Assembly (NCBI GenBank): GCA_025150425.1
Contig: CP102281.1
Coordinates: forward strand, 372,001 to 436,000
Reading direction: 5' to 3'
Source: [Eubacterium] siraeum
GTDB taxonomy: Bacteria > Bacillota > Clostridia > Oscillospirales > Ruminococcaceae
DNA length: 64,000 bases
The stretch's first letter is position 1. Each line of letters starts with the position of its first letter. Both the position numbers and the translations under genes were made by a program. A model generated the notes under the pieces. It did not search any database. It was not told the origin of the DNA and worked only from the letters and a program-made list of their open reading frames with translations. Positions 33,596-63,227 of the stretch are shown piece by piece.

Positions 33596-33771
33596 CAAAC
33601 TGTCGATAAACCTCTATCGTTGATAAAAATGGGGTCGCAGGGGCGTAGCCCCCGACAGGGTCTAGGGGCGGTAGCCCCAGTAATATAGCCCCTTCCCACG
33701 GGGAAGGGGTTTGGGGTTAGGGATAGAGAATTTGCTCTATTTTTATAAAAATAGACTTTTTCGACAAACTG
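33596..33771 (+). mobile_element. Small non-coding hairpin-bounded element, copy 1 (176 bp)
   Basis: Its termini are inverted: CAAACTGTCGATAAAC at the left and the complement of the right end, CAGTTTGTCGAAAAAG. Inside are at least four hairpins: GTCG/CGAC around a GGGGC/GCCCC core (33634-33656), GGGGC/GCCCC (33665-33678), CCCCTTCCC/GGGAAGGGG (33689-33709) and ATAGAG/CTCTAT (33723-33740). There is no plausible protein. Direct repeats of 26 bp abut both ends exactly. Confidence 0.85.
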
Positions 33772-33799
33772 AAAGTCCGTTGCAACCAACGGACTTTTT
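33772..33799 (+). terminator. glgP terminator hairpin, right copy of the duplication
   Basis: Same 26 bases as 33570-33595, here still followed by T's (ACTTTTTC), so it is probably the functional end of the original terminator. Confidence 0.88.
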
Positions 33800-33860
33800 C
33801 GGGTATATATAACCACCCTCCGACTTTAATCCGACTTTAATCCGAAAGGAATGTTTTTTA

Positions 33861-35741
33861 ATGGATACTCCGATATTCGACTGCTTCGACTTAAACTATA
33901 AAAGCCCGTTCGGAGCAATACGACAGTATCAGCCCAGCACATTCTCCCTGCGTTTTCCGAAGGAATGGAACGTCACCGACCCTACTCTTGTAATGTTTCG
34001 TCCGGGCGAAAAGGAACGCTTCATACCGCTTGACATTGCCGATACGACCACAGAATGCAACGTGTTTACCTGTAATTTCAACCCCTTGCATAAAGGTCTG
34101 CACCACTATTATTTCTCTTTGATGATAGACGGCAACAGGCGATATGTAAAGCGTGGCGGAGCAAGGCTCGGCGTTCTTGATAACGGAGAGCTGTTCCAGC
34201 TTACCGTTTTTGACAAGGATATGGCGGCTCCCGACTGGATAAAGGGCGGAATTATGTATCAGATATTCCCCGACAGATTCTGCCGAAGCGGAGAAAAGCA
34301 CGAAAACGTTCCTACAGACAGAATAATCCACGAAAACTGGGAGGATACCCCGTTCTTCCGTCCGGATGACAGAGGAATTATCCGCAACAACGATTATTTC
34401 GCAGGAGATTTCAAAGGCATAGAAAGCAAGCTCCCTTATCTTCAGAGTTTAGGCGTTACCTGCATTTATCTCAACCCTGTTTTCGAGTCACACGAAAATC
34501 ACCGTTATTCGACCGCCTGCTATGAGCATATCGACCCTATGCTCGGCACGGACGAGGATTTTGAGCATCTGTGCAAACAGGCTAAAACATACGGTATAGA
34601 CATTATCCTTGACGGCGTGTTCTCGCATACGGGTGCTGACAGCATCTATTTCAACAAGTTCGGCAGATACGGAGATCACGAGGGCGCATACAGAGATCCC
34701 GACAGCAAATATAAAAACTGGTACTGCTTCTCACGCTATCCTTTCGATTATGAATCGTGGTGGGGCATTACCACACTTCCCAATGTAAATGAGAACAACC
34801 CCGACTACACAGAATATATCTGCGGTGAAAACGGTATATTACAGCGTTGGATAGACAAGGGCGCAAGAGGCTGGCGACTTGACGTTGCCGATGAGCTTCC
34901 CGATGAATTCCTTGACAATCTCAATAAGGCTGTAAAAGCCAAGGGCGACGATAAGGTCATCTACGGCGAGGTATGGGAGGATGCGTCCAACAAGGAGAGC
35001 TACGGTGTCCGCAGACGTTATCTCATAGGCGGTCAGCTTGACAGCGTTATGAACTATCCTTTCAAGGAAGCTATCATAAACTACTGCAAGTACGGCGATG
35101 CAAGAGGCTTTGAAGACGGAGTTATGACGATACTTGAGCATTACCCCAAGCCCAGTGCCGATATGCTGATGAACTTCCTGTCAACTCACGATACCGAGCG
35201 TATCTTGACAAGACTTGCCGGCGAGGATGTAGGCTGGCATGACAGAGAATGGCAGGCTGAACGCTACCTTTCGCCCGAACAGTACGTTTACGGTCTTTCA
35301 CTGCTTAAATGCGCTATGGTACTGCAATTCTTCCTGCCCGGTGTGCCGTGCATATATTACGGCGATGAAGCAGGTCTTGAGGGCTATAAGGACCCGTTCA
35401 ACAGACGCTGTTACCCGTGGGGCAAAGAGAATATAGATATGATAGACTTCACAAAACAGCTTGCCGGGATAAGAAAGGCAAGCAAGGCGTTCGCTCAGGG
35501 CGAAATGAAGTTTTTAAGCTGTACACCTGAGGAATGCGTATTTGCAAGAATCGACAAGCTAAACCGTGAGGCAGCCGTTATATTCCTGAACAAGTCGAAA
35601 TATCCTAAGACGTTTAAGCTTGACGACTATATGAAGGGCGAATATACCGACCCGAAATTCCTCAGAAAGCCTCACGAGAGCGAAGAAAAGACGATAAAGC
35701 TCTCTCCGTTTGATTACGGTGTGCTTGTATGCAGTATATAA
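33861..35741 (+). CDS. GH13 alpha-glycosidase (neopullulanase/cyclomaltodextrinase type)
   Basis: Hydrolyses maltodextrins or cyclodextrins. An N-terminal beta domain of about 125 residues (CBM34-like) leads into the barrel at KGGIMYQIFPDRF near 132. The nucleophile is D341 in RLDVADE, the acid/base E370 in GEVWEDAS and the stabiliser D444 in STHDTER. Length 626. No signal peptide is present, so it acts inside the cell on imported oligosaccharides, upstream of malQ and glgP. AAAGGA lies before ATG 33861. Confidence 0.94.
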   Translation: MDTPIFDCFDLNYKSPFGAIRQYQPSTFSLRFPKEWNVTDPTLVMFRPGEKERFIPLDIADTTTECNVFTCNFNPLHKGLHHYYFSLMIDGNRRYVKRGGARLGVLDNGELFQLTVFDKDMAAPDWIKGGIMYQIFPDRFCRSGEKHENVPTDRIIHENWEDTPFFRPDDRGIIRNNDYFAGDFKGIESKLPYLQSLGVTCIYLNPVFESHENHRYSTACYEHIDPMLGTDEDFEHLCKQAKTYGIDIILDGVFSHTGADSIYFNKFGRYGDHEGAYRDPDSKYKNWYCFSRYPFDYESWWGITTLPNVNENNPDYTEYICGENGILQRWIDKGARGWRLDVADELPDEFLDNLNKAVKAKGDDKVIYGEVWEDASNKESYGVRRRYLIGGQLDSVMNYPFKEAIINYCKYGDARGFEDGVMTILEHYPKPSADMLMNFLSTHDTERILTRLAGEDVGWHDREWQAERYLSPEQYVYGLSLLKCAMVLQFFLPGVPCIYYGDEAGLEGYKDPFNRRCYPWGKENIDMIDFTKQLAGIRKASKAFAQGEMKFLSCTPEECVFARIDKLNREAAVIFLNKSKYPKTFKLDDYMKGEYTDPKFLRKPHESEEKTIKLSPFDYGVLVCSI

Positions 35742-35749
35742 ATATTTGC

Positions 35750-35778
35750 TTGTTTTTTTACACACGATAGTGTATAAT
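35750..35778 (+). promoter_or_regulatory. Promoter of the saccharopine-dehydrogenase-like gene
   Basis: TTGTTT, 17 bases, TATAAT. The leader contains a small hairpin, CTGCC/GGCAG (35803-35816), just before the ribosome site. Confidence 0.65.
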
Positions 35779-35834
35779 CTATTTGTAACCACTATGTGAC
35801 GTCTGCCCTCAGGCAGAGCGGAAAGGAAAGAAAA

Positions 35835-37040
35835 ATGGGAAAAGCATTGATAATCGGTGCCGGCGGTGTTGCCGGAGTAGTAGTCCATAAGTGCTGTCAG
35901 AACAGCGAGGTTTTCACTGAGATCTGTATTGCCAGCCGTACAAAGTCAAAGTGCGATGCGCTGAAAAAGCAGGTAGAGGAAAAGGGTACAAAGACTAAGG
36001 TAACGACTGCACAGGTAGACGCAGACAGCGTTCCTCAGCTTGTTGAGCTTATAAATAAGGAAAAGCCCGACATTGTCATAAACGTTGCGCTTCCTTATCA
36101 GGACCTTACAATAATGGACGCCTGCCTTGAAACAAAGACAGACTATGTTGATACTGCAAACTACGAGCATCCCGACACAGCAAAGTTTGAGTACAAGTAT
36201 CAGTGGGCATACAGAGAAAAGTTTGAAAAGGCGGGCATCACCGCACTTCTCGGAAGCGGATTCGACCCCGGTGTAACCGGTGTATTCTGCGCCTATGCCC
36301 AGAAGCATTACTTTGACGAGATCAATTATATTGATATTCTCGACTGCAACGGCGGCGACCACGGTTACCCGTTTGCGACAAACTTCAACCCCGAGATAAA
36401 TATCCGTGAGGTATCCGCAAAGGGCAGTTATATCGAGGACGGCAAGTGGGTAGAAACCGAGCCTATGGAGATAAAGAGAGAGTACGACTTTGAGCAGGTC
36501 GGCAAGAAGGATATGTACCTTCTGCACCACGAGGAGCTTGAATCGCTCGCACTCAATATCAAGGGTATCAAGCGTATCCGTTTCTTTATGACGTTCGGAC
36601 AGAGCTATCTCACACATCTGAAGTGCCTCGAAAATGTCGGTATGACATCTATCAAGCCCATTATGTACGAGGGCAGAGAGATAGTACCGCTCCAGTTCCT
36701 TAAGGCAGTTTTGCCCGATCCTGCATCGCTCGGTCCCAGAACAGTCGGCAAGACCAATATCGGCTGTATCTGCATAGGCAAGAAGGACGGCAAGGAAGTA
36801 CACTACAAGGTTTACAACTGCTGCGATCATCAGGAATGCTACAAGGAGGTCGGCTCGCAGGCTATCAGCTACACGACCGGCGTTCCTGCTATGATAGGAG
36901 CAATGATGGTAATGACAGGCAAGTGGAAGAAGCCCGGCGTCTACAACATCGAGGAATTCGATCCCGATCCGTTTATGGACGCACTGAACAAGTGGGGACT
37001 TCCGTGGCACGAAACATTCGACCCTGAGCTTGTAGACTGA
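35835..37040 (+). CDS. Saccharopine dehydrogenase family, likely carboxynorspermidine synthase
   Basis: A 401-residue NADP-type enzyme. The Rossmann motif is ALIIGAGGVAGVV at 4-16, and DIVINVALPYQD, TDYVDTANYE and GSGFDPGVTGVF follow, the pattern of carboxynorspermidine/carboxyspermidine dehydrogenases of polyamine synthesis. ATG 35835 with GGAAAGGAAAG upstream is preferred to the start at 35796. The decarboxylase NspC, often next door, is not in this window: the next gene is convergent dinB. A lysine-pathway role is less likely but not excluded. Confidence 0.82.
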   Translation: MGKALIIGAGGVAGVVVHKCCQNSEVFTEICIASRTKSKCDALKKQVEEKGTKTKVTTAQVDADSVPQLVELINKEKPDIVINVALPYQDLTIMDACLETKTDYVDTANYEHPDTAKFEYKYQWAYREKFEKAGITALLGSGFDPGVTGVFCAYAQKHYFDEINYIDILDCNGGDHGYPFATNFNPEINIREVSAKGSYIEDGKWVETEPMEIKREYDFEQVGKKDMYLLHHEELESLALNIKGIKRIRFFMTFGQSYLTHLKCLENVGMTSIKPIMYEGREIVPLQFLKAVLPDPASLGPRTVGKTNIGCICIGKKDGKEVHYKVYNCCDHQECYKEVGSQAISYTTGVPAMIGAMMVMTGKWKKPGVYNIEEFDPDPFMDALNKWGLPWHETFDPELVD

Positions 37041-37059
37041 TCCCGTAACCGAATACTAT

Positions 37060-37084
37060 GCCCGTCACGCTTTGCGTGACGGGC
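37060..37084. terminator. Bidirectional terminator between convergent genes
   Basis: GCCCGTCACGC pairs perfectly with GCGTGACGGGC around TTT, with T-rich sequence on both sides. Confidence 0.85.
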
Positions 37085-37087
37085 TTT

Positions 37088-38326
37088 CTATTTATTCAGC
37101 ATATTGCCCGGAAGCGAAACCACCGCCTTCGATTTCGGCACGGCAAGCCCTGTCAGCAGCACAGCATTCTTGATCATTCCCTCCCCGAATCTTTTGCGTA
37201 TATCCCTGATACAGCCGTCTGCCTTTTCCATTTTTTCAAGCCTTACCGTATCGTTGAAAAAGCTGTTCTGTATCACCGCACCGCCGTCCACAAGAGAAAA
37301 TGCGGTTACCGTAAGCGACCGCACAGGATTTACCCAATCGTAATTGTCGCAGAACAGCCTGTATGCCGTATCCGCAATTATCATCGGCGAGCGTGTCGCT
37401 GTCGGAAGCTCCGTCTGCCACTCCCTGTTTCTGAGAATGCTCGACCTTGCGTTCACACAAACCTTAGTCGCATACTTGTTTTGAATCGTCAGCCTTTTCC
37501 CTATATCCTGAGCCAACTCAAGAAGCAACGGCTTTGCGTCCTCGCACCGTGTTATATCCGCTGTGGTCGTCACACCGTGCCCCACGCTTTTTGCAGGCAT
37601 CGAAAAATCAGCAGGCATAACCTGCGAGTTATCCGTTCCGTTTGCGTAGCATCTTAGCATATATCCGTTCTTGCCAAGCACCTTTGTTATCCACTGTGCG
37701 TCGCACTGTGCAAGTTCACCCAGTGTATATATCCCGTAATCGTTCAGCTTTGCGGTAGTCGCTCTGCCTGCCCCTATCATATCGCTGAGCGGAAGATTCC
37801 ATATCTTCTCACGGAACGTTTCTCTCGGTATCACCGTCACCGCATCCGGCTTTTTCATATCGCTTCCGAGTTTTGCAAACACCTTGTTGAACGATACCCC
37901 GACCGATATGGTAAGCCCAAGTTCCTCCTTTACGGTACGCCTTATCTCGTCTGCCACCTTTTCAGGTGCGCCGAACAGCCTTCTCGTACCGCTTATATCA
38001 AGCCAGCATTCGTCCATTCCGAACGGCTCGATAAGATCCGTATACCGCTCGTATATCTTCCTTGCAAGTCTGCTGTACCTGAGATATTCCTCAAAGTGCG
38101 GCGGTACGATAACAAGCCCCCTGCACTTTGATTTTGCCGATGCCACCGTTTCCGCCGTCTTTACTCCCTGCGCCTTTGCAAGCTCGTTTTTCGCAAGCAC
38201 TATTCCGTGCCGCTCCTCGACCGAACCGCACACAGCCACAGGATATTTCTTAAGTTCCGGATTCAGCCTGCATTCAACCGACGCAAAGAAATTGTTCATA
38301 TCGCAGTGAAGTATATCACGTTCCAT
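37088..38326 (-). CDS. dinB: DNA polymerase IV (Y family)
   Basis: An error-prone lesion-bypass polymerase. Palm residues are in ILHCDMNNFFASVE (D9) and GMDECWLDISG near 105, where the usual SIDE reads GMDE. KNELAKAQGVKTAE is the fingers. HhH and little-finger domains follow. The length of 412 is normal, and no clear beta-clamp peptide was identified at the C-terminus. It is transcribed divergently from ridA, with overlapping promoter sequence in the 160-base gap. No LexA box was recognised. Confidence 0.93.
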   Translation of the reverse strand: MERDILHCDMNNFFASVECRLNPELKKYPVAVCGSVEERHGIVLAKNELAKAQGVKTAETVASAKSKCRGLVIVPPHFEEYLRYSRLARKIYERYTDLIEPFGMDECWLDISGTRRLFGAPEKVADEIRRTVKEELGLTISVGVSFNKVFAKLGSDMKKPDAVTVIPRETFREKIWNLPLSDMIGAGRATTAKLNDYGIYTLGELAQCDAQWITKVLGKNGYMLRCYANGTDNSQVMPADFSMPAKSVGHGVTTTADITRCEDAKPLLLELAQDIGKRLTIQNKYATKVCVNARSSILRNREWQTELPTATRSPMIIADTAYRLFCDNYDWVNPVRSLTVTAFSLVDGGAVIQNSFFNDTVRLEKMEKADGCIRDIRKRFGEGMIKNAVLLTGLAVPKSKAVVSLPGNMLNK

Positions 38327-38350
38327 TTTATCGCCTCTTATTTGTTTTGC

Positions 38351-38847: not shown

Positions 38848-38857
38848 AGGAGTAATT

Positions 38858-43263: not shown

Positions 43264-43294
43264 AGGCAATACCGCATAATTAGCGGTATCGCCT
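43264..43294. repeat. Left copy of a 31-bp palindromic target duplication
   Basis: AGGC-A-ATACCGC pairs with GCGGTAT-C-GCCT around ATAATTA. It is repeated without change at 43608-43638, directly abutting both ends of element copy 2. Confidence 0.92.
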
Positions 43295-43607
43295 CAGACT
43301 GTCGAAAAACCTTTTAATTATTAAAAATTGGGGTCGCAGGGGCGAAGCCCCCGACAGGGTCTAGGGGCGGTAGCCCCACACTCAGCCCCGGCACGGATGC
43401 CGGGCGTGTATGCCCAAAGGCTCTGCACGATGCAGAGCCAACAAAGCATACACAGCCCTTCACCACGGAGAAGGGGTTTGGGGTTTCGGCAAGGACGCCG
43501 AGATAGAACGCTCAAAGGCTTTGCAGGACGCAAAGCCCACAAAGCGTTCTTATAGGGATAGAGAATTTGCTCTATTTTTTATAAAAACAGACTTTTTCTA
43601 CAAACTG
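43295..43607 (+). mobile_element. Hairpin-bounded element, copy 2 with two extra modules (313 bp)
   Basis: Its termini are CAGACTGTCGAAAAAC and the complement CAGTTTGTAGAAAAAG. The core hairpins match copy 1. Two further nested hairpin modules lie at 43388-43453 and 43486-43550. It sits between the polA promoter and its ribosome site, with 31-bp direct repeats on both sides. No protein is encoded. Confidence 0.85.
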
Positions 43608-43638
43608 AGGCAATACCGCATAATTAGCGGTATCGCCT
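43608..43638. repeat. Right copy of the 31-bp palindromic target duplication
   Basis: Identical to 43264-43294. Only about 50 bases separate it from the polA start. Confidence 0.92.
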
Positions 43639-43689: not shown

Positions 43690-46179
43690 ATGGGATTTCT
43701 TATTATTGACGGCAACAGCATATTAAACCGTGCATTCTACGGTATCCGTGTGCTGACAAATTCAAGAGGTGTTGCCACAAATGCCGTAACAGGCTTTATG
43801 AACACTCTGCTTATGCTTGAAAAGGATGTAAATCCGGATATGATAGCGGTAGCTTTCGACCTTAAAGCGCTGACATTCCGCCATAAGATGTATGACGGCT
43901 ATAAGGCAAACCGCAAGGGTATGCCCGAAGACCTCGCTCAACAGCTCCCCTATATGAAAAAGATAATCACCGCAATGGGAATAACCATTATCGAAAAAGA
44001 GGGCTTTGAAGCCGATGATATAATCGGAACTGTTTCAGCCGCCTGTGCGGATAAGAAGATACCCTGTACAGTGTCAACGGGCGACCGTGACTCGTTCCAG
44101 CTTGTAAATGATTACGTTACCGTAAGACTTGCCAAGACAAAAGGCGACATTTACTATACGCCCGATGTTATTATGGAAGAGTACGGCGTGACTCCGAAAC
44201 AGATGATAGAAGTAAAGGCGCTTATGGGCGATTCGAGCGACAACATTCCGGGTGTTCCCGGCATAGGTGAAAAGACCGCTCTTTCACTTATAAAGGAATT
44301 TGCAAGCGTGGACGGAGTTTATGAAAACATCGGCTCAACGCTTATCACAAAGGGTGTACGCACAAAGCTTGAAAACGGCAAGGAAAGCTGTTATATGAGC
44401 AGACAGCTTGCCGAAATATGTCTTACCGCACCTATTGATACCGAGCTTTCGCATTATGTTCCGAAAGAACGTGACGATGCCGAGCTTGCAAGATTGCTGT
44501 CGGAGCTTGAAATGTACAAGATGCTCCAGAAGCTGAAGCTGCACCCGACTTCCGCTCCGACAGGCTCAAAAGAGGCTTTGGAAGAATCCGCCGCAAAGCA
44601 GATACCCGCAATGCCTGCAGGCGATATAGTTCTGACGCAGGAGGGGGGCGTATACGCAGGCACAGTAGGCGCTCCTGTAAAATTGTCCGACGTGGAGCTT
44701 AAAGCCTATGCCGACAGCGACAGCACGAAGTACACCTTTGATATAAAGGAAACGCTGACTGTTACCGGCTGTGAAAGGCTTAAGAACAACCGTTTTGATA
44801 CAACGCTTGCGGCTTACCTTGCCGACCCCGATTCAAACGATTACAGCCTGTCAAGGCTCTGCGCTCAGTACGGAGTTCCGGAGGGAAACAGCATACAGGA
44901 AAAGTCGATAACCGTTGCCGCCCTCAACGATATACTTAATTGCAAAATCAGTGAAACAGGCTCTGCGGCAGTCCTTACCGATATAGAGATACCTCTTGCC
45001 ACTGTGCTTGTAGCTATGGAGCGTGAGGGTGTAAGCATTGACGCAGACGGTATAAAGGCTTTCGGTAAAGAGGTTTGCGAAAAGGCTGAAAAAATCAGCC
45101 GTGAGATCTATGAATACGCAGGTTATGAATTCAATATAGGCTCGCCAAAACAGCTCGGAAGCGTGCTTTTTGAAAAACTTGCATTGCCCAGTGCCAAAAA
45201 GACAAAAACAGGCTATTCCACAAACGCCGATGTGCTTGAAAGCCTTATGGACAAGCACCCTATAGTTCCGCTGATAACCGAATACCGTGCGCTTACAAAG
45301 CTGCAGAACACTTATGTTACAGGACTTCTGAAGGTAGTAGGCGAGGACGGCAGGATTCATTCGACCTTCAAGCAGACGGAAACAAGGACAGGAAGAATTT
45401 CAAGCGCCGAGCCGAACATTCAGAATATCCCCGTAAGAACCCCGCTTGGCAGGGAGATGAGAAGATTCTTCACCGCAAAGGACGGCTGCCTGCTTGTCGA
45501 TGCCGACTATTCACAGATCGAACTGCGTGTGCTGGCTCATATTTCTGGCGACGAGATAATGAAGAAAGCGTTCCTTGACGGAGTGGATATTCATACCGTT
45601 ACTGCATCTCAGGTGTTCAATCAGCCGATAGAGTGGGTAACGCCCGACCTCAGAAGCAAGGCGAAAGCGGTCAACTTCGGCATCGTCTACGGAATAGGCG
45701 CATTCTCGCTGTCAAAGGACATCGGTGTTTCAGTGCCGAAAGCAAGCGAATATATCCGCTCCTATCTTTCCAAATATTCCGGCATAGCTCACTATATGGA
45801 GCAGACCGTTGCAAAGGCTAAGCGTGACGGCTATGTTGAAACTATGTTCGGCAGAAGAAGATATATCAAAGAGCTTGCCGCAAAGAATAAGAATCTGCAG
45901 GCTTTCGGTGAGCGTGTCGCAAAGAACACCCCCATACAGGGTACAGCCGCCGATATAATTAAAATTGCGATGATAAAAGTTTACAACAGACTGAAAGAAA
46001 GCGGTCTTGATGCAAGGCTGATACTTCAGGTTCACGATGAACTTATCGTAGAGGCAAAAGAAGATTGCGCAGAAAAGGTAGCCTTACTTTTAAAGGAAGA
46101 AATGGAGAATGCCGTAAAGCTCACCGTTCCTATGACGGTAGATGTAAATATTGGCAAAACGTGGTATGATACTCATTGA
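43690..46179 (+). CDS. polA: DNA polymerase I, probably without proofreading
   Basis: Fills gaps and removes RNA primers. The 5'-3' exonuclease domain is at 1-290 (FLIIDGNSILNRAFYG, GFEADDIIGT, STGDRDSFQLV, GDSSDNIPGVPGIGEKTA). A shortened middle domain (about 300-420) lacks the DxE of 3'-5' exonucleases: the place of DTET reads TFDIKETL. The polymerase has motif A DADYSQIELR near 604, motif B RSKAKAVNFGIVYG near 655 and motif C VHDEL near 781. Length 829. CGAAAGGA precedes the ATG. rimI overlaps its 3' end. Confidence 0.97.
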   Translation: MGFLIIDGNSILNRAFYGIRVLTNSRGVATNAVTGFMNTLLMLEKDVNPDMIAVAFDLKALTFRHKMYDGYKANRKGMPEDLAQQLPYMKKIITAMGITIIEKEGFEADDIIGTVSAACADKKIPCTVSTGDRDSFQLVNDYVTVRLAKTKGDIYYTPDVIMEEYGVTPKQMIEVKALMGDSSDNIPGVPGIGEKTALSLIKEFASVDGVYENIGSTLITKGVRTKLENGKESCYMSRQLAEICLTAPIDTELSHYVPKERDDAELARLLSELEMYKMLQKLKLHPTSAPTGSKEALEESAAKQIPAMPAGDIVLTQEGGVYAGTVGAPVKLSDVELKAYADSDSTKYTFDIKETLTVTGCERLKNNRFDTTLAAYLADPDSNDYSLSRLCAQYGVPEGNSIQEKSITVAALNDILNCKISETGSAAVLTDIEIPLATVLVAMEREGVSIDADGIKAFGKEVCEKAEKISREIYEYAGYEFNIGSPKQLGSVLFEKLALPSAKKTKTGYSTNADVLESLMDKHPIVPLITEYRALTKLQNTYVTGLLKVVGEDGRIHSTFKQTETRTGRISSAEPNIQNIPVRTPLGREMRRFFTAKDGCLLVDADYSQIELRVLAHISGDEIMKKAFLDGVDIHTVTASQVFNQPIEWVTPDLRSKAKAVNFGIVYGIGAFSLSKDIGVSVPKASEYIRSYLSKYSGIAHYMEQTVAKAKRDGYVETMFGRRRYIKELAAKNKNLQAFGERVAKNTPIQGTAADIIKIAMIKVYNRLKESGLDARLILQVHDELIVEAKEDCAEKVALLLKEEMENAVKLTVPMTVDVNIGKTWYDTH

Positions 46180-46714: not shown

Positions 46715-46936
46715 AAACCGCATAACAAAGCCATTTATGACGCTTTGGCAACAGCAGGAATATCTCGTTTTCAACCGTAGATTTCCGTTCATGCCGTATT
46801 ACTGCGTACATTCTTTGATTGCCACAAACCGCATAACAAAGCCATTTATGACGCTTTGGCAACAGCAGGAATATCTCGTTTTCAACCGTAGATTTCCGTT
46901 CCTGCCGTATTACTGCTTACATTTCCCGATTGCCAC
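46715..46936. repeat. Two tandem 111-bp repeats
   Basis: Units start at 46715 and 46826 and are nearly identical; AAACCG begins each, and a third partial start is at 46937. Frames across them are open only because the repeat has no stop in one frame, so no gene is called. Confidence 0.85.
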
Positions 46937-47441
46937 AAACCGTATTGCTATGCGATTTGCAGTGCGTACAGCCCCACCGTTTTGCTATCGCACGAAACGC
47001 ACCGACTATTCCAAAGGCGGAACTTGAAGCGGCTCACAGCCGCAGGCGGAATTTGGAGCGGCACATTGCCGCAAAAACGGCAGACACATTTTATCCGTGC
47101 CTGCCGTCTTATTTTTATCAATATCACGCTGTCAAACCGCATTGTAAAGCCAAATAATCGCTATACACGGCAACCCGCTTCACACGATTTTCTGTTTTAC
47201 TCTGCACCTGACAAAGTATATGTCTTAACTGCCACAAACCGCATTGCTATGCGATTTGCAGTGCGTTCAGCCACGCCGCTAAGCTATCATGCGGATAGCT
47301 CAACAGTTCCAAAGGCGGAATTTGAAGTGGCGCATTGCCAAAGGCGGAATTTGAAGCGACACATTGCCACCCGCCGTTTCGCTATCGCACGAAACGCACC
47401 GACAATTCCAAAGGCGGAATTTGGAGCGGCACATTGCCGCC
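46932..47441. repeat. Repeat-rich spacer between rimI and gpmI
   Basis: Two related blocks start with GCCACAAACCG (46932 and 47229) followed by ATTGCTATGCGATTTGCAGT. The unit CCAAAGGCGGAATTTG plus a GCGGC/GCCGC hairpin appears about five times (near 47011, 47045, 47309, 47341, 47408). A third shared word, GCTATCGCACGAAACGCACC, occurs at 46983 and 47381. The spacer 47110-47228 shows nothing I can name. No convincing gene. Confidence 0.75.
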
Positions 47442-47447
47442 CGCCGC

Positions 47448-49049
47448 TTAGATCATGCTTTCCTGCCAGCAGTCAGGCGCTGTAAGACCGAGCATCTTAA
47501 CGATGGTGGGAGCAACGTTTGCCAGACCGTACTTGGTGGGAACGCCGGGAGCGTACTTTGTATCGTCCTTGATAGTGTACTTGACTTCCTTATCATAGAT
47601 GATGAAAGGAACGGGGTTGAGCGAGTGGGCTGTTCTTACCTGAACCTCACCCTTCTTGTTCTTTTCGAGCATCTCGTCTGCGTTGCCGTGATCGGCGGTT
47701 ACAACGAGCGTAACACCGTACTCATCGCAAACCTTGATAAGTCTTGAAAGGCCGAGGTCAACCGCTTCAACACCGATTATTGTTGAGTCGAGGCTGCCTG
47801 TGTGTCCGACCATATCGCCGTTGGGGTAGTTGCAACGGATAAAGTCATACTTCTTGCTCTTTATTACTTCGATAAGATCGTCTGTTATCTCAGCGGACTT
47901 CATCCACGGACGCTGATCGAATGAAACGTTGTCGGAGGGTATTTCCTTGTATGTTTCAAGCTCTTCGCTGAACTTATCGCTCTTATTGCCGTTCCAGAAG
48001 TAAGTTACATGGCCGTACTTCTGTGTTTCGGATACGGCATATTCGTTAAGACCTGCGGCAACGAGTACCTCTGTGAGAGTGTTTGTAATCTCGGGAGGAT
48101 TTACAAGGAAGCGTGCAGGAAGCTTTAAGTCGCCGTCATACTGCAGCATACCTGCGAAGCATACGTCGGGCTTTGCGCCTCTGTCAAATGCAGTGAAGTC
48201 GTCATCGTCGAATGCCATTGAAAGTTCGATAGCACGGTCGCCTCTGAAGTTGAAGAGGATAACGCTGTCCTTGTCAACTATCTTGCCTACAGGCTCGCCG
48301 TTCTCAGCGATTACGAATGCAGGGAGATCCTGGTCGATGATGCCGTCGTTTTCCTTACGGTAGGTTTCAACAGCTTCCATAGCTGATGCAAACTGTCTGC
48401 CCTCGCCCTTGACGTGAGTCTTCCAGCCAAGTTCAACCATAGGCCAGTCAGCCTGATAACGATCCATAGTAACCTTCATACGTCCGCCGCCGCTTGCTAT
48501 CTTACCGTCAAAAGCGCCGTCCGCATTAAGTTCCTTGAGGAAGCTCTCAAGCTGTTCAATATATATCGGAGCAGAAGTAGCGGGTACATCTCTTCCGTCG
48601 AGCAGAATGTGTACTCTTGCCTTCTTGATGCCCTCGTTCTTGGCTTCTGTCAGCATCTTGAACAGGTGCTTGATATTTGAGTGAACGTTACCGTCCGATA
48701 AAAGACCGATGAAGTGCAGGGTGCTGTTGTTAGCCTTGCAGTTGTCAACGAGTTCTTTCCAAGCCTCAGACTGATACATCTTTCCGCTTTCGATAGATTC
48801 GTTAACAAGCTTTGCGCCCTGTGAGTAAATCTGACCGCAGCCGAGTGCGTTGTGACCTACCTCTGAGTTGCCCATATCGTCATCTGTAGGCAGACCTACA
48901 GCGTCACCGTGAGCCTTTAAACGAGTGTTGGGGCATTCTCTTAAAAGTCTGTCAAGAGTAGGAGTGTTGGCGAGTGTAACTGCGTCGCCAAGACCTGTCT
49001 TTGAAAAGCCTACGCCGTCCATAACAACGAGTAAAACGGGTTTTGCCAT
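47448..49049 (-). CDS. gpmI: Phosphoglycerate mutase, 2,3-bisphosphoglycerate-independent
   Basis: Interconverts 3- and 2-phosphoglycerate with two Mn ions. The catalytic serine is S62 in MGNSEVGHNALGCG, and metal-binding DGVGFSK, LLDGRDVPA, YPNGDMVGHTG and VTADHGNADEM are intact. Length 533. CGAAAGGA precedes the ATG. Last gene of pgk-tpiA-gpmI. Confidence 0.97.
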   Translation of the reverse strand: MAKPVLLVVMDGVGFSKTGLGDAVTLANTPTLDRLLRECPNTRLKAHGDAVGLPTDDDMGNSEVGHNALGCGQIYSQGAKLVNESIESGKMYQSEAWKELVDNCKANNSTLHFIGLLSDGNVHSNIKHLFKMLTEAKNEGIKKARVHILLDGRDVPATSAPIYIEQLESFLKELNADGAFDGKIASGGGRMKVTMDRYQADWPMVELGWKTHVKGEGRQFASAMEAVETYRKENDGIIDQDLPAFVIAENGEPVGKIVDKDSVILFNFRGDRAIELSMAFDDDDFTAFDRGAKPDVCFAGMLQYDGDLKLPARFLVNPPEITNTLTEVLVAAGLNEYAVSETQKYGHVTYFWNGNKSDKFSEELETYKEIPSDNVSFDQRPWMKSAEITDDLIEVIKSKKYDFIRCNYPNGDMVGHTGSLDSTIIGVEAVDLGLSRLIKVCDEYGVTLVVTADHGNADEMLEKNKKGEVQVRTAHSLNPVPFIIYDKEVKYTIKDDTKYAPGVPTKYGLANVAPTIVKMLGLTAPDCWQESMI

Positions 49050-57966: not shown

Positions 57967-57983
57967 CAGGAAAGAGGAATATA

Positions 57984-58844
57984 ATGGCAATACGCAACTT
58001 CAATGAATGGCTCTCAAAATTCCGAAGTAGCATTGCAAACTATGGATATTACATAGATTTTGACAAGGTGTATCGTAATGTCAACGATATAAAGGTAGAG
58101 CTTAACATTCTTAATTCTCTTATTGGTTCAACAGATATAGAGAACGATTTTAAGAATATTATTACCAAGTACCCTGAGACATTGAAGTGTATTCCTATTC
58201 TTCTTGCAGTAAGGGCTAACGAGATCTACGCTATTGACGGCGATGGTGAGTTTTCGTATAATTTCAAGAAGGCTAAATACTCTCCGGAACAGTATGCAGT
58301 ATTTATGCGTAAAACCGGATTGTTTGAACTGCTTGAAAAACACATAATTCATACCCTCGTTGATTATGTTACCGGTGTTGAAACCGGACTGGACTCAAAC
58401 GGTCGCAAAAATCGTGGCGGTCATCTGATGGAAGATTTGGTCGAGAGCTACATTGTTAAAGCGGGCTTTGAGAAGAACAAGACCTATTTCAAGGAGATGT
58501 ACATTCACGAGATTACCGAGAAATGGGGTATTGACCTTTCTGCTATTTCAAACAGCGGTAAAATGGAAAAGCGTTTCGATTTTGTTATCAAGACCGATAA
58601 AGCTATCTACGGAATTGAAACGAATTTCTATGCGAGTGGCGGCTCAAAGCTGAACGAAACTGCTCGCAGCTATAAGCAGATAGCACAGGAGGTTGCTACC
58701 ATAAACGGCTTTGAATTTGTATGGTTTACCGATGGCTCTGGTTGGACAAGTGCAAGGCACAATCTTGAGGAAACATTTGATGTTATGGAGCATATCTACT
58801 CAATTGATGATTTGGAGAAAGGAATATTGAGTGAATTATTATGA
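57984..58844 (+). CDS. DpnII/MboI-family restriction endonuclease (GATC)
   Basis: A type II restriction enzyme of 286 residues. It follows the DpnII sequence closely throughout: NFNEWL at the start, LNSLIGS near 43, LVDYVTGVETGLDSNGRKNR at 125-144, RFDFVIK at 197-203 and SKLNETARSYK at 221-231. The PD-(D/E)XK-like centre is D199 and E212 in DFVIK...GIETNFY. ATG 57984 with AAGAGG upstream; the longer frame from 57912 overlaps the previous gene. The stop overlaps the next start (ATGA). Confidence 0.94.
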   Translation: MAIRNFNEWLSKFRSSIANYGYYIDFDKVYRNVNDIKVELNILNSLIGSTDIENDFKNIITKYPETLKCIPILLAVRANEIYAIDGDGEFSYNFKKAKYSPEQYAVFMRKTGLFELLEKHIIHTLVDYVTGVETGLDSNGRKNRGGHLMEDLVESYIVKAGFEKNKTYFKEMYIHEITEKWGIDLSAISNSGKMEKRFDFVIKTDKAIYGIETNFYASGGSKLNETARSYKQIAQEVATINGFEFVWFTDGSGWTSARHNLEETFDVMEHIYSIDDLEKGILSELL

Positions 58845-59785
58845 AAAAGCCAAAGATATATAGTTTTAAGATGTTAGCCAAAGACACACTTGAAAAAACA
58901 AATATGCCACTAACAGTTGAGGAGATGTGGGAACAAGCCAAGATATGCGGTTTTGATAAGAGAATAAATACATCAGGAAAAACGCCATGGCGAACACTTG
59001 GTGCACAGTTGTATGTCGAAATAAGGGATAACCCAGACAGCGAATTTATACAGGTTTCCAAAAGACCTGTTAAGTTCTCGTTAAAAAAACAAGGTGATCA
59101 AAAACCTGAACAAAAGGAAGAATTACCTGCATCAGAACATAACGATAACTTTTTAGAGCGAGATCTTCACCCTTTGCTGACTTCTTTTGTTTATGGTGAT
59201 TCTCATTTCAAATGTTATACCAAAACCATATATCATGAGAAATCAAACAAAGACAAAAAAGGCAAGAACAAATGGTTGCACCCTGATATTGTAGGGGTGT
59301 ATTTTCCGTTTGATGATTATTCAGAAAGCACTCTTAATATAATCAAATCATTCAACGAGAATTCAATTAAGCTGTTCTCTTTTGAAATGAAAATTACTAT
59401 TGATATGCCGCATTTAAGAGAGTATTTCTTCCAAGCGGTATCTAATTCCAGTTGGGCAAATGAAGGTTATCTTGTTGCATTAAGGTATTCTGAAGATTCG
59501 GATTTTATAGATGAAATGCGCCGATTAAATAATGCTTTTGGAATTGGGTTTATAAAACTTAATGCTGAAGATGTGGCACAAAGCGAGATTCTATTACCCG
59601 CAAGAGAAAATAAATCCAATGACTGGGAAATGATAAACCGATTGGTAGAAGAAAACCCAGATTTTAAAACATTTATAGATTGGATCACAGAGGACTATCA
59701 GGTGAAAAAGGTCAAGAGCCAATACGATGATATTATTTCACCTGAAAGAATGCAAGAATATGTTACTGAACATGGAATAACATAA
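58841..59785 (+). CDS. HrgA-like protein with HARE-HTH domain
   Basis: A 314-residue protein. Residues 5-80 are a HARE-HTH winged-helix domain (SFKMLAKDTLEKTNMPLTVEEMW, PWRTLGAQLYVEIRD). The C-terminal 200 residues resemble COG2958/HrgA proteins, with a nuclease-like SFEMK core near 185 and LHPDIVGVYFPF near 142. In Helicobacter pylori hrgA occupies the place of the GATC endonuclease gene beside a GATC methylase; here both genes are present. The ATG lies in the previous stop (4-base overlap). Function unknown. Confidence 0.8.
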   Translation: MKKPKIYSFKMLAKDTLEKTNMPLTVEEMWEQAKICGFDKRINTSGKTPWRTLGAQLYVEIRDNPDSEFIQVSKRPVKFSLKKQGDQKPEQKEELPASEHNDNFLERDLHPLLTSFVYGDSHFKCYTKTIYHEKSNKDKKGKNKWLHPDIVGVYFPFDDYSESTLNIIKSFNENSIKLFSFEMKITIDMPHLREYFFQAVSNSSWANEGYLVALRYSEDSDFIDEMRRLNNAFGIGFIKLNAEDVAQSEILLPARENKSNDWEMINRLVEENPDFKTFIDWITEDYQVKKVKSQYDDIISPERMQEYVTEHGIT

Positions 59786-59793
59786 GAGGACAT

Positions 59794-60543
59794 ATGGCAA
59801 ATAAGAAAATCACCAAATGGGAACCCGAAAATTTCGAACTTGAAATGACCACCCACTGGTCGTTTCCCAAGCGAGGAGACTGGGCTACTCACGATGCAAA
59901 ATGGCGAGGGAACTGGTCGCCGTACATACCGAGAAATATCATTCTTCGATATTCGCAAGAGGGTGATTTAGTCCTCGACCAGTTTGCCGGAGGCGGCACA
60001 ACGCTTGTTGAAGCAAAGCTACTTAACCGTGATATTATCGGAATTGATATAAACGATGTTGCGCTTGAACGCTGCAGTGAAAAGACAGCTTTCGACTATG
60101 AGCCTGCCAAAGGAAAGGTGTATATTAACAAAGGTGACGCTCGATGCCTTGATAGCATACCCGATGATAGTATAGACCTTATCTGCACTCACCCGCCCTA
60201 CGCTGATATAATCAAGTATAGTGACGGAATTGATGGTGACTTATCTCAACTCAAGGTCAAAGACTTCCTCGAACAGATGAAGCCTGTTGCTGAAGAAAGT
60301 TACCGAGTTTTGAAAAAGGGTAAGTTTTGTGCTATTCTCATGGGCGATACACGTCAAAAGGGTTGCATGATCCCCATGAGCTTTGATGTCATGAAGATTT
60401 TTCAAGACGCAGGTTTTACGCTCAAAGAGCTTATCATCAAGGAACAGCATAACTGTAGAGCAACAGGATATTGGAAAACCAACAGCGTAAAGTACAATTT
60501 TCTGCTTATTGCACATGAATATTTGTTTGTTTTCAGAAAATGA
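59794..60543 (+). CDS. Second DNA methyltransferase of the island
   Basis: A 249-residue AdoMet-dependent methyltransferase. Motif I LDQFAGGGTTLVEA is at 61-74, before motif IV THPPY at 132-136, and an N-terminal RGNWSPYIPRNII near 38-50 is typical of type II site-specific methylases with an HPPY motif (m6A or m4C). It does not look like DpnA. Target unknown. AAGAGGA lies before the ATG. Last gene of the island; a strong terminator follows. Confidence 0.88.
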   Translation: MANKKITKWEPENFELEMTTHWSFPKRGDWATHDAKWRGNWSPYIPRNIILRYSQEGDLVLDQFAGGGTTLVEAKLLNRDIIGIDINDVALERCSEKTAFDYEPAKGKVYINKGDARCLDSIPDDSIDLICTHPPYADIIKYSDGIDGDLSQLKVKDFLEQMKPVAEESYRVLKKGKFCAILMGDTRQKGCMIPMSFDVMKIFQDAGFTLKELIIKEQHNCRATGYWKTNSVKYNFLLIAHEYLFVFRK

Positions 60544-60555
60544 CCTTAATAACAT

Positions 60556-60585
60556 CGGCGGCCCGGTAACACTACCGAGCCGCCG
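60556..60585. terminator. Bidirectional terminator after the island
   Basis: CGGCGGC-CGGTA pairs with TACCG-GCCGCCG around ACAC with one mismatch. It separates the island from the convergent MATE gene. Confidence 0.75.
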
Positions 60586-60609
60586 CTCTATATTGCTTTA
60601 TATAACCGC

Positions 60610-62004
60610 TTAATCTGCGTTTTTGTTTGTCATTGCCGATTCAGGTTCAACCGGCAAAGCAACATTCTTCTGCCAATATCCGTACTTTTTCCTCTTTACG
60701 ATAAGGAACATCAGCGACAGCAGGAAAGCGAAAAATTCCGCCACAACATTCGCCATCCATATACCGTCAACATCGAAAATAAGGGGCAGTATAAGTATGC
60801 TTGAAACCTGGAATATAAGTGTTCTCATAAACGACACAGCCGCAGAGATAGCGCCGTTTCCGAGTGCGGTGAAGAACGATGACGTGAATATATTGAAGCC
60901 TGCAAGTAAAAAGCACAGCGAGAATATCCTGAAAGCGTGACGTGTCTGCTCGTAAAGCTCTGCGTCATAGCCGACAAATATCTTTGCGAGAGGGCTTGCA
61001 AGCACCGCCGACAATGCGACAAGGGTAACTCCCGCTATCGCCGCAAAGCAAAGGCTCTTTTTGAGCATATTGTTCAGCTCATAACGGTTCTGCGCTCCGT
61101 AGTTGAAGCCTATCACGGGTGCGCATCCGATAGAATAGCCGACAAATATCGCTATGAAAATGAACTGCACATACATCATTACGCCAAAGGTCGAAACGCC
61201 GTTTTCGCCTATATATTTCATCAGCTGGAAGTTGTAGATTATACTTACGACCGATGAGGAAATGCTCGACATAAGCTCCGATGAACCGTTCGCACAGGCA
61301 CGCAGGAGCGGTCTTATCTCAAGCCTTGTCTTAGTAAGACGCAGTATGCTTGAGTTCGGACGGAGAAAGTAGATAAGAGGGAATATTCCGCCGACACATT
61401 CGCTGATGCCCGTAGCAAATGCCGCACCTGCAACGCCAAAGCCCATAAGACCTACAAATACAGCGTCAAGTATGATATTCGTACAGCCTGCCATAATAGT
61501 TGAAATAAGTCCGAGTTTAGGCTTCTCGGCGGCAATGAAAAAGCTCTGGAATACGTTCTGGAGCATAAAAGCCGTTGTAAATGATATTACTATTCTGCCG
61601 TAAAGCACACAGTCGCCCAGCATTTCGGGAGTTGCACCGAAGAACACCGCAACGTTTTCGGTAAAAATAAGGCCGAATGTTGTGAGTACCGCACCGAGTA
61701 TCACCGTCAGCATTATCATCATTGTGAAATAGCGTTTTGCCGTCTTTTCGTCACCCTCGCCGAGCTTCTGAGAAACAAGCGCCGTTCCGCCCGTGCCGAC
61801 CATAAAGCCCACACCGCCGAGTATCATTACAAACGGCATTATAAGATTGATAGATGCGAAAGAGGTCTTGCCGGCAAAATTCGATACAAAAAAGCCGTCA
61901 ACAACGCCGTATATGGATATAAACACCATCATAGCCACCGACGGCAGTACAAACCTGAAAAGCCGTCCTGCTGTAAAGTGATCCGAAAGTTTTATCTTGC
62001 TCAT
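60610..62004 (-). CDS. MATE-family efflux transporter controlled by MarR
   Basis: A 464-residue, 12-helix exporter of a different branch from the one at 52594 (MepA-like: SVAMMVFISIYGVVDGFFVSNFAG). The second-half repeat is present. It follows the marR gene by 26 bases, so drug-type substrates that free MarR are probable. Ribosome site AAGGAGAACAAAGGG lies before the ATG. Confidence 0.93.
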   Translation of the reverse strand: MSKIKLSDHFTAGRLFRFVLPSVAMMVFISIYGVVDGFFVSNFAGKTSFASINLIMPFVMILGGVGFMVGTGGTALVSQKLGEGDEKTAKRYFTMMIMLTVILGAVLTTFGLIFTENVAVFFGATPEMLGDCVLYGRIVISFTTAFMLQNVFQSFFIAAEKPKLGLISTIMAGCTNIILDAVFVGLMGFGVAGAAFATGISECVGGIFPLIYFLRPNSSILRLTKTRLEIRPLLRACANGSSELMSSISSSVVSIIYNFQLMKYIGENGVSTFGVMMYVQFIFIAIFVGYSIGCAPVIGFNYGAQNRYELNNMLKKSLCFAAIAGVTLVALSAVLASPLAKIFVGYDAELYEQTRHAFRIFSLCFLLAGFNIFTSSFFTALGNGAISAAVSFMRTLIFQVSSILILPLIFDVDGIWMANVVAEFFAFLLSLMFLIVKRKKYGYWQKNVALPVEPESAMTNKNAD

Positions 62005-62030
62005 TTTCCCTTTGTTCTCCTTTTGTATCT

Positions 62031-62471
62031 TTATATTTTTGCCGTCTGATTTTTAAGAAGTACGCTGTACAGCTTCATAAGCGCAGTCATATTCTCGGTT
62101 TCTTCATCTGTCATATTGCCGAGTGCGGCGCATTCCGCCTCTATCACCTTATCTACCGTCTGTTCGCACAGCTTTGTTCCGCTTTTTGTAAGGCTGATAT
62201 TCTTTGTGTGCGCACCTGCCGGAGTAAGCATTATATAGCCCTCGCTTTCGAGCTTTTTCAGTGCGGAGTTTACCGTCTGCTTAGGCTGATACAGCACGGT
62301 GCAGACATCGCTCTGCGTTATGTTGCCCGGCTCCATACGCAGTGTGTACAGCGTCCAGAAAGCCGCTTCCGAAAATCCGTAGCGCTTTGCTATATTCCTG
62401 TAGCAATCATCTATTGATTTCAGTACATTGTTATATTCATACAGTTTTTTTCTGTTGTTTTTATTATCCAA
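62031..62471 (-). CDS. MarR-family regulator
   Basis: A 146-residue winged-helix repressor: SEAAFWTLYTLRMEPGNITQSDVCTVL, PKQTVNSALKKLESEGYI (recognition helix) and a wing with TPAGAHTKNISLTKSG. The start is TTG 62471, with AAGGAG seven bases upstream; the ATG at 62564 would lie upstream of the promoter. Two palindromes in the promoter are the probable operator, so it represses itself and the MATE pump. Confidence 0.9.
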   Translation of the reverse strand: MDNKNNRKKLYEYNNVLKSIDDCYRNIAKRYGFSEAAFWTLYTLRMEPGNITQSDVCTVLYQPKQTVNSALKKLESEGYIMLTPAGAHTKNISLTKSGTKLCEQTVDKVIEAECAALGNMTDEETENMTALMKLYSVLLKNQTAKI

Positions 62472-62499
62472 GCTGATTCTCCTTGTCGGCAAATGTTTA

Positions 62500-62515
62500 A
62501 GTCCGAAATCGGACT
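62500..62515. promoter_or_regulatory. MarR operator, proximal site
   Basis: AGTCCGAAATCGGACT, a palindrome apart from its AA/AT centre, lies between the promoter and the ribosome site. Its inverse copy is 28 bp away, centre to centre. Confidence 0.8.
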
Positions 62516-62522
62516 GAGAGAT

Positions 62523-62551
62523 ATTATAATCCGATTTCGGACTATTGTCAA
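62523..62551 (-). promoter_or_regulatory. Promoter of marR-MATE with embedded operator
   Basis: On the minus strand: TTGACA, 17 bases, TATAAT, a perfect sigma-A promoter. The operator copy 62528-62543 fills the spacer, so a bound regulator would exclude RNA polymerase. Confidence 0.9.
62528..62543. promoter_or_regulatory. MarR operator, spacer site
   Basis: AATCCGATTTCGGACT matches the reverse of the proximal site at 15 of 16 bases and lies between -35 and -10. Confidence 0.8.
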
Positions 62552-62571
62552 GAGCTTTTTGCAAAAAATAA

Positions 62572-62598
62572 AAACTGTGCCTGAAACAGACACAGTTT
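62572..62598 (-). terminator. Terminator of the 120-aa membrane protein gene
   Basis: AAACTGTG and CACAGTTT pair around 11 bases; on the minus strand TTTATTTTTT follows. Confidence 0.78.
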
Positions 62599-62621
62599 AG
62601 CTGTCAAATTTTATTATCGCC

Positions 62622-62984
62622 TTACACCTTTGTGAACAACCCGTAATAACCGTTTATACGGGATGCAAACTGAATTTTTTCACCGTTTTCGATAAAGCCG
62701 ATTCTGCCGCCCATATCATTTTCAGGGTCACGCTCAATACCTTTACCTTTCAGATAATCTGCCAGCTTTTCAACAGAATCCGCAGGCGGACACATTATAA
62801 TTTTTCCGCCGTCTATCTCTGTCGCATTCTCCGAGCCGCTTATAATTCCGAAAAATGCAGGGAACGAAGAAAAACAGTTGAAGGTGTTGAATTTTGCCGC
62901 AGAAAAGACAGATGATAACAGCAAAACGGCTGATACTGCCACGGGTATTGCGATGATAATGATACGTTTTCCGATCTTGGTCAT
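62622..62984 (-). CDS. Small membrane-anchored protein, unknown
   Basis: A 120-residue protein with MTKIGKRI, a hydrophobic segment at about 8-28, and a soluble domain of about 85 residues (DGGKIIMCPP, KLADYLKGKG) that faces outward if the segment is an anchor. ATG 62984 has AAAGGAG eight bases upstream. No family recognised. Its promoter region has been disturbed by element copy 3. Confidence 0.68.
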   Translation of the reverse strand: MTKIGKRIIIIAIPVAVSAVLLLSSVFSAAKFNTFNCFSSFPAFFGIISGSENATEIDGGKIIMCPPADSVEKLADYLKGKGIERDPENDMGGRIGFIENGEKIQFASRINGYYGLFTKV

Positions 62985-63029
62985 AAAGTGGACTCCTTTC
63001 AATTTGCAGGCATTGCTAAAGCATTGCAT

Positions 63030-63053
63030 TTGCTATTACCTTTATAATAGCAT
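63030..63053. repeat. Left copy of a 24-bp palindromic target duplication
   Basis: TTGCTATTACC...TAATAGCAT, with TGCTATTA pairing with TAATAGCA. It matches 63228-63251 at 23 of 24 bases. Confidence 0.9.
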
Positions 63054-63227
63054 CAGACTGTCGAAAAACCTCTATCGTTGTTAAAAATGGGGTTGAGGGG
63101 CGTAGCCCCCAACAGGGACTAGGGGCGGTAGCCCCAGTAATATAGCCCCTTTCCGGGGGAAAGGGGTTTGGGGATAGGGATAATAAATCAGAAGTTTATT
63201 TCAAAAACAGACTTTTTCTACACGCTG
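63054..63227 (+). mobile_element. Hairpin-bounded element, copy 3 (174 bp)
   Basis: Its termini are CAGACTGTCGAAAAAC and the complement CAGCGTGTAGAAAAAG. Hairpins match copy 1 with compensatory changes: GTTG/CAAC (63092-63113), CCCCTTTCC/GGAAAGGGG (63146-63166) and AATAAA/TTTATT (63182-63200). It lies inside the promoter region of the minus-strand gene 62622-62984. No protein is encoded. Confidence 0.85.

What the first reader, a model, noticed from the sequence alone, without database searches (positions are those of the whole stretch)
33596..63227. Compensatory changes show the element family keeps hairpins by selection
Between copies 1 and 3 paired bases change together: GTCG/CGAC against GTTG/CAAC, CCCCTTCCC/GGGAAGGGG against CCCCTTTCC/GGAAAGGGG, ATAGAG/CTCTAT against AATAAA/TTTATT. 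Such covariation is the standard sign of a conserved RNA or single-stranded DNA fold. With inverted ends and 24-31 bp palindromic target duplications, this looks like a non-autonomous mobile element that targets hairpins and that I cannot match to a named family. Duplications of this length are rare; I recall IS1202-related insertion sequences making similar ones, so one could be the helper.
Basis: partly seen in the sequence, partly recalled or inferred. Interest (0 to 1): 0.88.

Follow-up and report, generated by a model that had tools for sequence, protein, structure and literature searches.

The report
Mobile DNA that duplicates whole hairpins
The window carries small non-coding jumping elements of a gut Clostridia bacterium that insert at DNA hairpins, often likely transcription stop signals, and leave a copy of the whole hairpin on each side; related full-size elements with IS1182-type transposases show the same habit, which the papers I could search describe only as a possibility.

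Summary
The repeats are real, but the covariation is the lesser part. The three copies belong to a MITE-like group: 45 copies with direct repeats in the 2.69 Mb genome, ends 5'-CAGnCTGTCGA, in families of 166-381 and 508-601 bp. The flanking repeats, 8-35 bp, are mostly complete hairpins that differ from site to site. In 38 of 45, both repeat edges lie within 2 nt of a hairpin foot; sliding windows predict 1.25. A relative holds the empty site of copy 1 with one hairpin; another carries an element there in the opposite orientation. IS with the same or similar ends encode IS1182-family transposases; of 14 near-full-length loci held, 12 have whole-hairpin duplications of 20-35 bp. So the helper is most likely IS1182-type, not IS1202. 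IS1272 of that family deletes its stem-loop; Wan et al. 2017 drew whole duplication as a hypothetical pathway b. Against: no intact helper in this genome, and seven IS1182-type loci have unlike hairpins on their two sides. Selection on internal hairpins is not shown: 3 of 31 pairs change on both sides, reached by 174 of 500 shuffles.

The parts
33570..33595 (.). left copy of target hairpin (26 bp) of copy 1
   Evidence: exact direct repeat of 33772-33797; single copy in relative G031
33596..33771 (+). copy 1, family A element, 176 bp
33772..33797 (.). right copy of target hairpin of copy 1
43264..43294 (.). left copy of target hairpin (31 bp) of copy 2
   Evidence: exact direct repeat of 43608-43638
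43295..43607 (+). copy 2, family A element with two extra hairpin modules, 313 bp
43378..43453 (+). first extra hairpin module of copy 2 (approximate limits, by eye against copy 1)
   Evidence: break points in the matches
43486..43552 (+). second extra hairpin module of copy 2 (approximate limits, by eye)
   Evidence: break points in the matches
43608..43638 (.). right copy of target hairpin of copy 2
63030..63053 (.). left copy of target hairpin (24 bp) of copy 3
   Evidence: direct repeat of 63228-63251 with 1 mismatch
63054..63227 (+). copy 3, family A element, 174 bp
63228..63251 (.). right copy of target hairpin of copy 3
   Evidence: BLAST of the 45 elements against the window; right end also
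4958..4989 (.). hairpin that follows the right end of the family B copy (by eye)

Best explanation
The elements are MITE-like, non-autonomous relatives of a subgroup of IS1182-family insertion sequences. A DDE transposase of that subgroup binds the CAGnCTGTCGA ends and cuts the element out. [quoted passage not shown] The two joints are staggered by the whole hairpin, so gap repair leaves one complete hairpin on each side. The duplication length is set by the hairpin (mostly 20-35 bp), not by a fixed transposase stagger. Insertion keeps a complete hairpin on each side and regenerates the target, so the site can be used again. Shown: ends, foot-to-foot duplication, a single-hairpin empty site, use of one hairpin in both orientations, and IS1182 transposases between the same or similar ends with the same duplications. 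Inferred: cruciform recognition, cleavage at the 5' foot, mobilisation in trans.
For:: 44 elements with both ends and direct repeats (45 rows, 1 composite removed); window copy 1 added later makes 45. (44 elements): 38 of 39 repeats of at least 19 bp form a hairpin of 5 or more pairs whose outermost pair lies 0-4 nt (left) or 0-2 nt (right) from the repeat edge; length tracks hairpin span (r 0.88); energy per nt -0.53 versus -0.06 in 2072 flank windows; 38 of 45 meet a two-edge test, 1.25 expected, maximum 8 in 100000 simulations; relative G031 holds the orthologous site of copy 1 with one hairpin; G025 has an element in the other orientation at the same hairpin; hairpin-element-hairpin-element-hairpin at 1336733-1337497; clear hairpin repeats around elements in 7 of 20 relatives' loci fetched, among them G055 and G048 outside the genus (several of the 20 end at contig ends). 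L123, a 1522-bp IS with CAGACTGTCGAAAAAC and CAGACTGTCGAAGAAC ends, IS1182 transposase (385.9 bits, cut-off 270) and a 35-bp hairpin on each side (2 mismatches between copies); of 14 near-full-length loci held, 12 have whole-hairpin direct repeats of 20-35 bp; L158 has a full hairpin left and part of it right; L157 has a hairpin left and its right flank is not held. In the 13 rows (these 12 plus fragment L163) 11 have the hairpin reaching both repeat edges exactly; 13 transposases of hairpin-flanked elements are split from two without hairpins at 100/100; the model resembles DDE transposases (piggyBat, Tn5), weakly.
Against: No intact IS1182 transposase in this complete genome: two sub-threshold pieces at 242979-243902, one with a stop; element-rich relatives G024, G025, G029 and G031 had no match either. 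Mobilisation in trans is inferred from shared ends and target habit. The 45 were chosen for having a direct repeat; 12 of the 40 loci L009-L048 contributed none to the 45. Seven of 45 fail the hairpin test: four have 8-10 bp repeats without a hairpin, two are AT-rich weak palindromes, one is a bulged hairpin. Seven IS1182-type loci (L117, L122, L131, L155, L159, L165, L169; by eye) have different hairpins on the two sides, as has family A copy L032; recombination between copies is the simplest account but was not tested. L168 shows no clear hairpin at its right end. Of four window copies, copies 2 and 3 gave no clean empty site and the junction of the fourth was not read. Cruciform extrusion was not tested.
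Confidence: 0.78

Rival explanations
1. Same IS1182-type element, but the transposase does not read a DNA cruciform: it is led to terminators by paused RNA polymerase, a nascent RNA hairpin or a terminator-binding protein, and the inverted repeat is cut as ordinary duplex.
For: 25 of 40 repeats of 15 bp or more have a T-tract after or an A-tract before them (at least 7 of 11); one-sided control 128 of 1882 windows. So many are terminator-like.
Against: Repeat edges follow the hairpin feet over 20-35 bp, which a protein at a fixed distance would not give; 15 of 40 lack such a tract; one hairpin was used in both orientations.
Confidence: 0.12
2. The hairpins inside the element are kept by selection as a functional RNA or single-stranded DNA structure.
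For: The named compensatory changes exist; 32 of 36 family A copies carry hairpin 3 in one of two fully matched arm types (this typing asks for both arms, so one-sided changes would fall in the 4 untyped); both strands fold better than shuffles.
Against: 3 of 31 pairs change on both sides, reached by 174 of 500 shuffles; helix 4 is 72% paired. Two of the 4 untyped copies have a mismatch in hairpin 3. Arm types occur with several tail types, so exchange of whole hairpins between copies can give the same picture. No Rfam match.
Confidence: 0.2
3. An IS1202-family transposase mobilises the elements.
For: Some IS1202-family IS make 16-28 bp duplications and their target is unknown (PMC10132070, sections 17-19).
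Against: Outer ends TGT and ACA there, CAG and CTG here; the two rve genes of the genome are IS3-like and lack the ends; an ISNCY model chosen from memory gave 17.7 bits against a cut-off of 250; IS with the same ends are IS1182.
Confidence: 0.03
4. The flanking hairpins belong to the element and travel with it, so they are not target duplications.
For: Hairpins sit on both sides of most copies.
Against: Hairpin sequences differ from site to site; the empty site of copy 1 in G031 has the hairpin without the element, and G024 and G448 have a related hairpin there.
Confidence: 0.01

Closest known systems
IS1272 and TnSha1 (IS1182 family, staphylococci)
   Same: Transposase family; target is an inverted repeat or stem-loop without sequence consensus, often a terminator (PMC5678879 abstract, passages and Discussion part 1; PMC4923244 passages).
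   Different: IS1272 replaces or partly deletes the stem-loop and leaves no duplication; here the whole stem-loop is duplicated.
Pathway b of the structure-dependent transposition model of Wan et al. 2017 (PMC5678879)
   Same: Joining at the 5' feet of a cruciform duplicates the whole stem-loop: the product seen here.
   Different: In the Discussion part that I read it is a drawn possibility without an example; here it is seen at tens of sites and in a subgroup of IS.
MITEPye1 of Paracoccus yeei (IS1182-type MITE, PMC11578231 passages)
   Same: Non-autonomous element with IS1182-like ends, no transposase, folds into stem-loops.
   Different: 4-bp direct repeats, 1-3 copies per chromosome, no hairpin target reported in the passages seen.
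IS1202 family, long-duplication group (PMC10132070, sections 17-19)
   Same: Long target duplications (16-28 bp).
   Different: Other outer ends and another transposase family; its authors found no conserved target for this group.

Membership tests
IS1182 family (autonomous elements) | transposase of the IS1182 family | tested here: met
   L123 385.9 bits, cut-off 270; L143-L150, L153 and L154 align to it at 38-53% identity, not each scanned against the model
IS1182 family (window elements) | encode a transposase | tested here: not met
   longest stop-free stretch in the 45 elements is 126 codons; the genome-wide IS1182 and rve searches hit none of them; hence MITE-like, not IS
IS1182-type MITE | ends shared with an autonomous IS1182 element, same kind of target duplication | tested here: met
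   shared CAGACTGTCGAAAAAC left end and whole-hairpin repeats in L123 and window copies
IS1182-type MITE | autonomous partner in the same genome | tested here: not met
   only sub-threshold remnants in G000
IS1182-type MITE | mobilised in trans by that transposase | not testable with these tools
   needs a transposition assay
IS1272-type stem-loop replacement | target stem-loop lost, no duplication | tested here: not met
   whole hairpin on both sides
IS1202 family | outer ends TGT and ACA | tested here: not met
   outer ends CAG and CTG, fixed by sites where the repeat does not end in T
IS1202 family | IS1202-type transposase near such ends | tested here: inconclusive
   PF00665 hits are IS3-like; the model NF033594 was chosen from memory and may not cover IS1202

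The most novel reading that the evidence does not exclude
A subgroup of IS1182 transposases, with its MITEs, integrates by reading DNA secondary structure: the hairpin is the target and also sets the duplication length, foot to foot.
Probability: 0.7. Interest if true: 0.72.

Novelty: new variant of a known kind. Interest (0 to 1): 0.62.

Why it matters
Most transposases make a target duplication of nearly fixed length (general knowledge). Here length follows the target's fold, so one transposase family would hold two outcomes for one kind of target: deletion (IS1272) and whole duplication (this subgroup). That makes a drawn model directly testable, offers matched transposases for asking which side of a hairpin foot is attacked, and suggests how a small element can crowd a genome at terminator-like sites without destroying them.

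Tried and rejected
IS1202 helper: rejected. IS3-like transposase genes at 682100 and 2067014: no pair of matching element ends around them. Functional RNA family: no Rfam match in the window or in 8 loci. Covariation as proof of selection: not significant for the number of two-sided pairs. Flanking hairpins as part of the element: rejected by the empty site. Empty site of copy 2: the region upstream of the matching gene looks unlike in the 6 relatives read (L185-L190, of 11 loci). Copy 3: in G031 the two flanks lie 110 bp apart and no matching hairpin was found. Family B copy of the window: one or both flanks matched in the ten relatives; junction not read. Solved structures: no IS1182 relative by sequence. 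Ten paper searches, seen as listings that were often capped, with five papers opened in part: no description of whole-hairpin duplication by IS1182 elements or a MITE seen, other than the hypothetical pathway b. The review by Siguier 2015 was not seen; I recall that ISfinder gives a wide range of duplication lengths for IS1182, and PMC4923244 and PMC5678879 cite the review for palindromic targets of some members, so the fact may partly be in print.

Changed on checking: the near-full-length set is 14, not 13 (L157 had been overlooked), and seven IS1182-type loci, not three, have unlike hairpins on their two sides. For that I lowered the best explanation from 0.80 to 0.78 and the novel case from 0.72 to 0.70.
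Full report
Observation. Copies 1, 2 and 3 are at 33596-33771, 43295-43607 and 63054-63227, with flanking direct repeats of 26, 31 and 24 bp that are palindromes. A BLAST of copy 1 with its right flank against the window's own genome (G000, one contig of 2,694,742 bases) gave 59 matches. Two end patterns gave 73 left-end and 74 right-end matches with up to 2 mismatches, against 0 and 1 for reversed control patterns.

The element group. With ends set as CAG and CTG, 45 rows had both ends and a direct repeat; one was a composite of two neighbours and was removed, leaving 44. Window copy 1, missed by the strict pattern because its end is CAA, was added later, making 45. They form family A (36 members, 166-381 bp) and family B (9 members, 508-601 bp). 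Longer A members carry extra hairpin modules at fixed places. The longest stop-free stretch in the 45 is 126 codons, and genome-wide IS1182 and rve searches hit none of them. A family B copy also lies in the window at 4456-4956. Not all copies entered the 45: of the 40 loci L009-L048 fetched for family A, 12 contributed none; at least one of these, L032, has different hairpins on its two sides.

The target. The direct repeats differ from site to site, apart from a shared one at two neighbouring elements, and nearly all are complete hairpins. In 44 elements repeat length was 8-35 bp, median 26; 38 of 39 repeats of 19 bp or more form a hairpin of at least 5 pairs with its outermost pair 0-4 nt from the left edge and 0-2 nt from the right; repeat length follows hairpin span (r 0.88); fold energy per nt is -0.53 against -0.06 for 2072 flanking windows and -0.13 for shuffles. 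By a stricter two-edge test 38 of 45 qualify; same-length windows slid along the same sites predict 1.25, and 100000 simulations never exceeded 8. The seven failures are four repeats of 8-10 bp without hairpin, AT-rich repeats of 15 and 19 bp, and one bulged 27-bp hairpin. Of 40 repeats of 15 bp or more, 25 have a T-tract after or an A-tract before them; the control, for one side only, is 128 of 1882 windows. So many are probably intrinsic terminators.

Target duplication shown. In relative G031 the two flanks of copy 1 align to positions that overlap by exactly one 26-bp hairpin: an empty site with a single hairpin. G024 and G448 also have a related hairpin there. G025 has a family A element in the opposite orientation at the same hairpin, which speaks for an independent insertion. 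At 1336733-1337497 three copies of one hairpin (the third with 2 mismatches) alternate with an A and a B element, as expected if an insertion regenerates its target. Copies 2 and 3 gave no clean empty site.

The helper. The end sequence TCAGnYTGTCGAWAAA occurs in 23 of 60 genomes searched, the own one included, and in five of them outside the genus. Of 20 loci fetched around such ends in relatives, 7 show clear hairpin repeats (L102, L104, L110, L114, L115, L116, L121); others end at contig ends or have altered repeats. In G048 one pair of ends bounds a 5'-truncated IS1182-family transposase (L117), and another bounds an intact one: L123, 1522 bp between CAG and CTG ends, 385.9 bits against the IS1182 model (cut-off 270), with a 35-bp hairpin on each side. 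A search of 391 Clostridia genomes with that protein (E up to 1e-30) matched 28. It showed 16 near-full-length places, of which 14 are held as loci. Of these 14, 12 have direct repeats of 20-35 bp that are whole hairpins (L123, L143-L150, L153, L154, L170); L158 has a full hairpin on the left and part of it on the right; L157 has a hairpin on the left and its right flank is not held. In one search, which adds the fragment L163 (17 bp), 11 of 13 hairpins reach both repeat edges exactly. L124 and L125, with other ends, have neither hairpin nor duplication. In the tree 13 transposases of hairpin-flanked elements (12 labelled so, plus L122) are split from L124 and L125 at 100/100; the tree is unrooted and has only two rows outside. 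The predicted structure (mean pLDDT 83.7) is weakly like DDE transposases such as piggyBat and Tn5.

What speaks against. No intact IS1182 gene was found in G000, only two sub-threshold pieces, and element-rich relatives G024, G025, G029 and G031 also had no match. So the elements here may be stranded, or served by a diverged transposase. Seven IS1182-type loci (L117, L122, L131, L155, L159, L165, L169), several of them broken copies, have hairpins on both sides that differ from each other (by eye). Recombination between copies would explain them; ends that attack two different hairpins, with loss of what lies between, is another possibility that I could not test. L168 shows no clear hairpin at its right end.

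Mechanism. [quoted passage not shown] Wan et al. 2017 (PMC5678879; abstract, passages and Discussion part 1 read) drew this as pathway b while reporting that IS1272 itself replaces its stem-loop without duplication; Furi et al. 2016 (PMC4923244; passages read) report partial hairpin deletion by TnSha1 and IS1272, with terminators among the targets. The present subgroup would be the natural case of pathway b.

Covariation. With 20 base-length copies 93.2% of cells pair, but only 3 of 31 pairs change on both sides, reached by 174 of 500 shuffles; the covariation score exceeded all shuffles, a control that does not remove relatedness. Hairpin 3 exists as TTCCC/GGGAA in 17 and TTTCC/GGAAA in 15 of 36 copies, 4 not typed, of which two have a mismatch; both types occur with tails a, b, d and e. 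Exchange of whole hairpins between copies, or repeated compensatory change, would both give this.

Novelty. Ten paper searches listed no report of whole-hairpin duplication by IS1182 elements or MITEs that I recognised. MITEPye1 (PMC11578231, passages) is an IS1182-type MITE with 4-bp repeats; ISPse1 of the same family is listed with a 4-bp repeat (PMC3281130, passages). The review by Siguier 2015 was not seen; two of the papers cite it for palindromic targets of some IS1182 members. Hence: new variant of a known kind.

Noticed in passing
window 4456-4989: A family B element with degenerate left end and a hairpin after its right end.
   Followed up: partly
window 46715-47467: Two tandem 111-bp units (95% alike) and several TTCCAAAGGCGGAA repeats downstream of the ORF at 43690-46179; similar AAGGCGGAATT text lies upstream of the matching gene in G031 (L185).
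   Followed up: no
window 6437-6515: Three units spaced by 25 bp at and after the end of the ORF 5145-6464.
   Followed up: no
G000 613290-616797 (L062), 1336733-1337497 (L053): Pairs of elements of this group close together; the second pair shares one hairpin in three copies.
   Followed up: partly
G000 209112, 828405, 548194, 1435: Four elements with 8-10 bp direct repeats and no target hairpin: perhaps the transposase's default stagger when no hairpin is used.
   Followed up: partly
L117, L122, L131, L155, L159, L165, L169: IS1182-type elements, several broken, with a different hairpin on each side: recombinants, or an event that used two targets.
   Followed up: partly
alignment A3: Four invariant cysteines (C338, C364, C367, C373 of the L123 transposase), a possible metal site.
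   Followed up: no
L124, L125: IS1182-type genes with GGGRCTGT-like ends, no hairpin and no duplication at the flanks: candidates for the replacing type.
   Followed up: no
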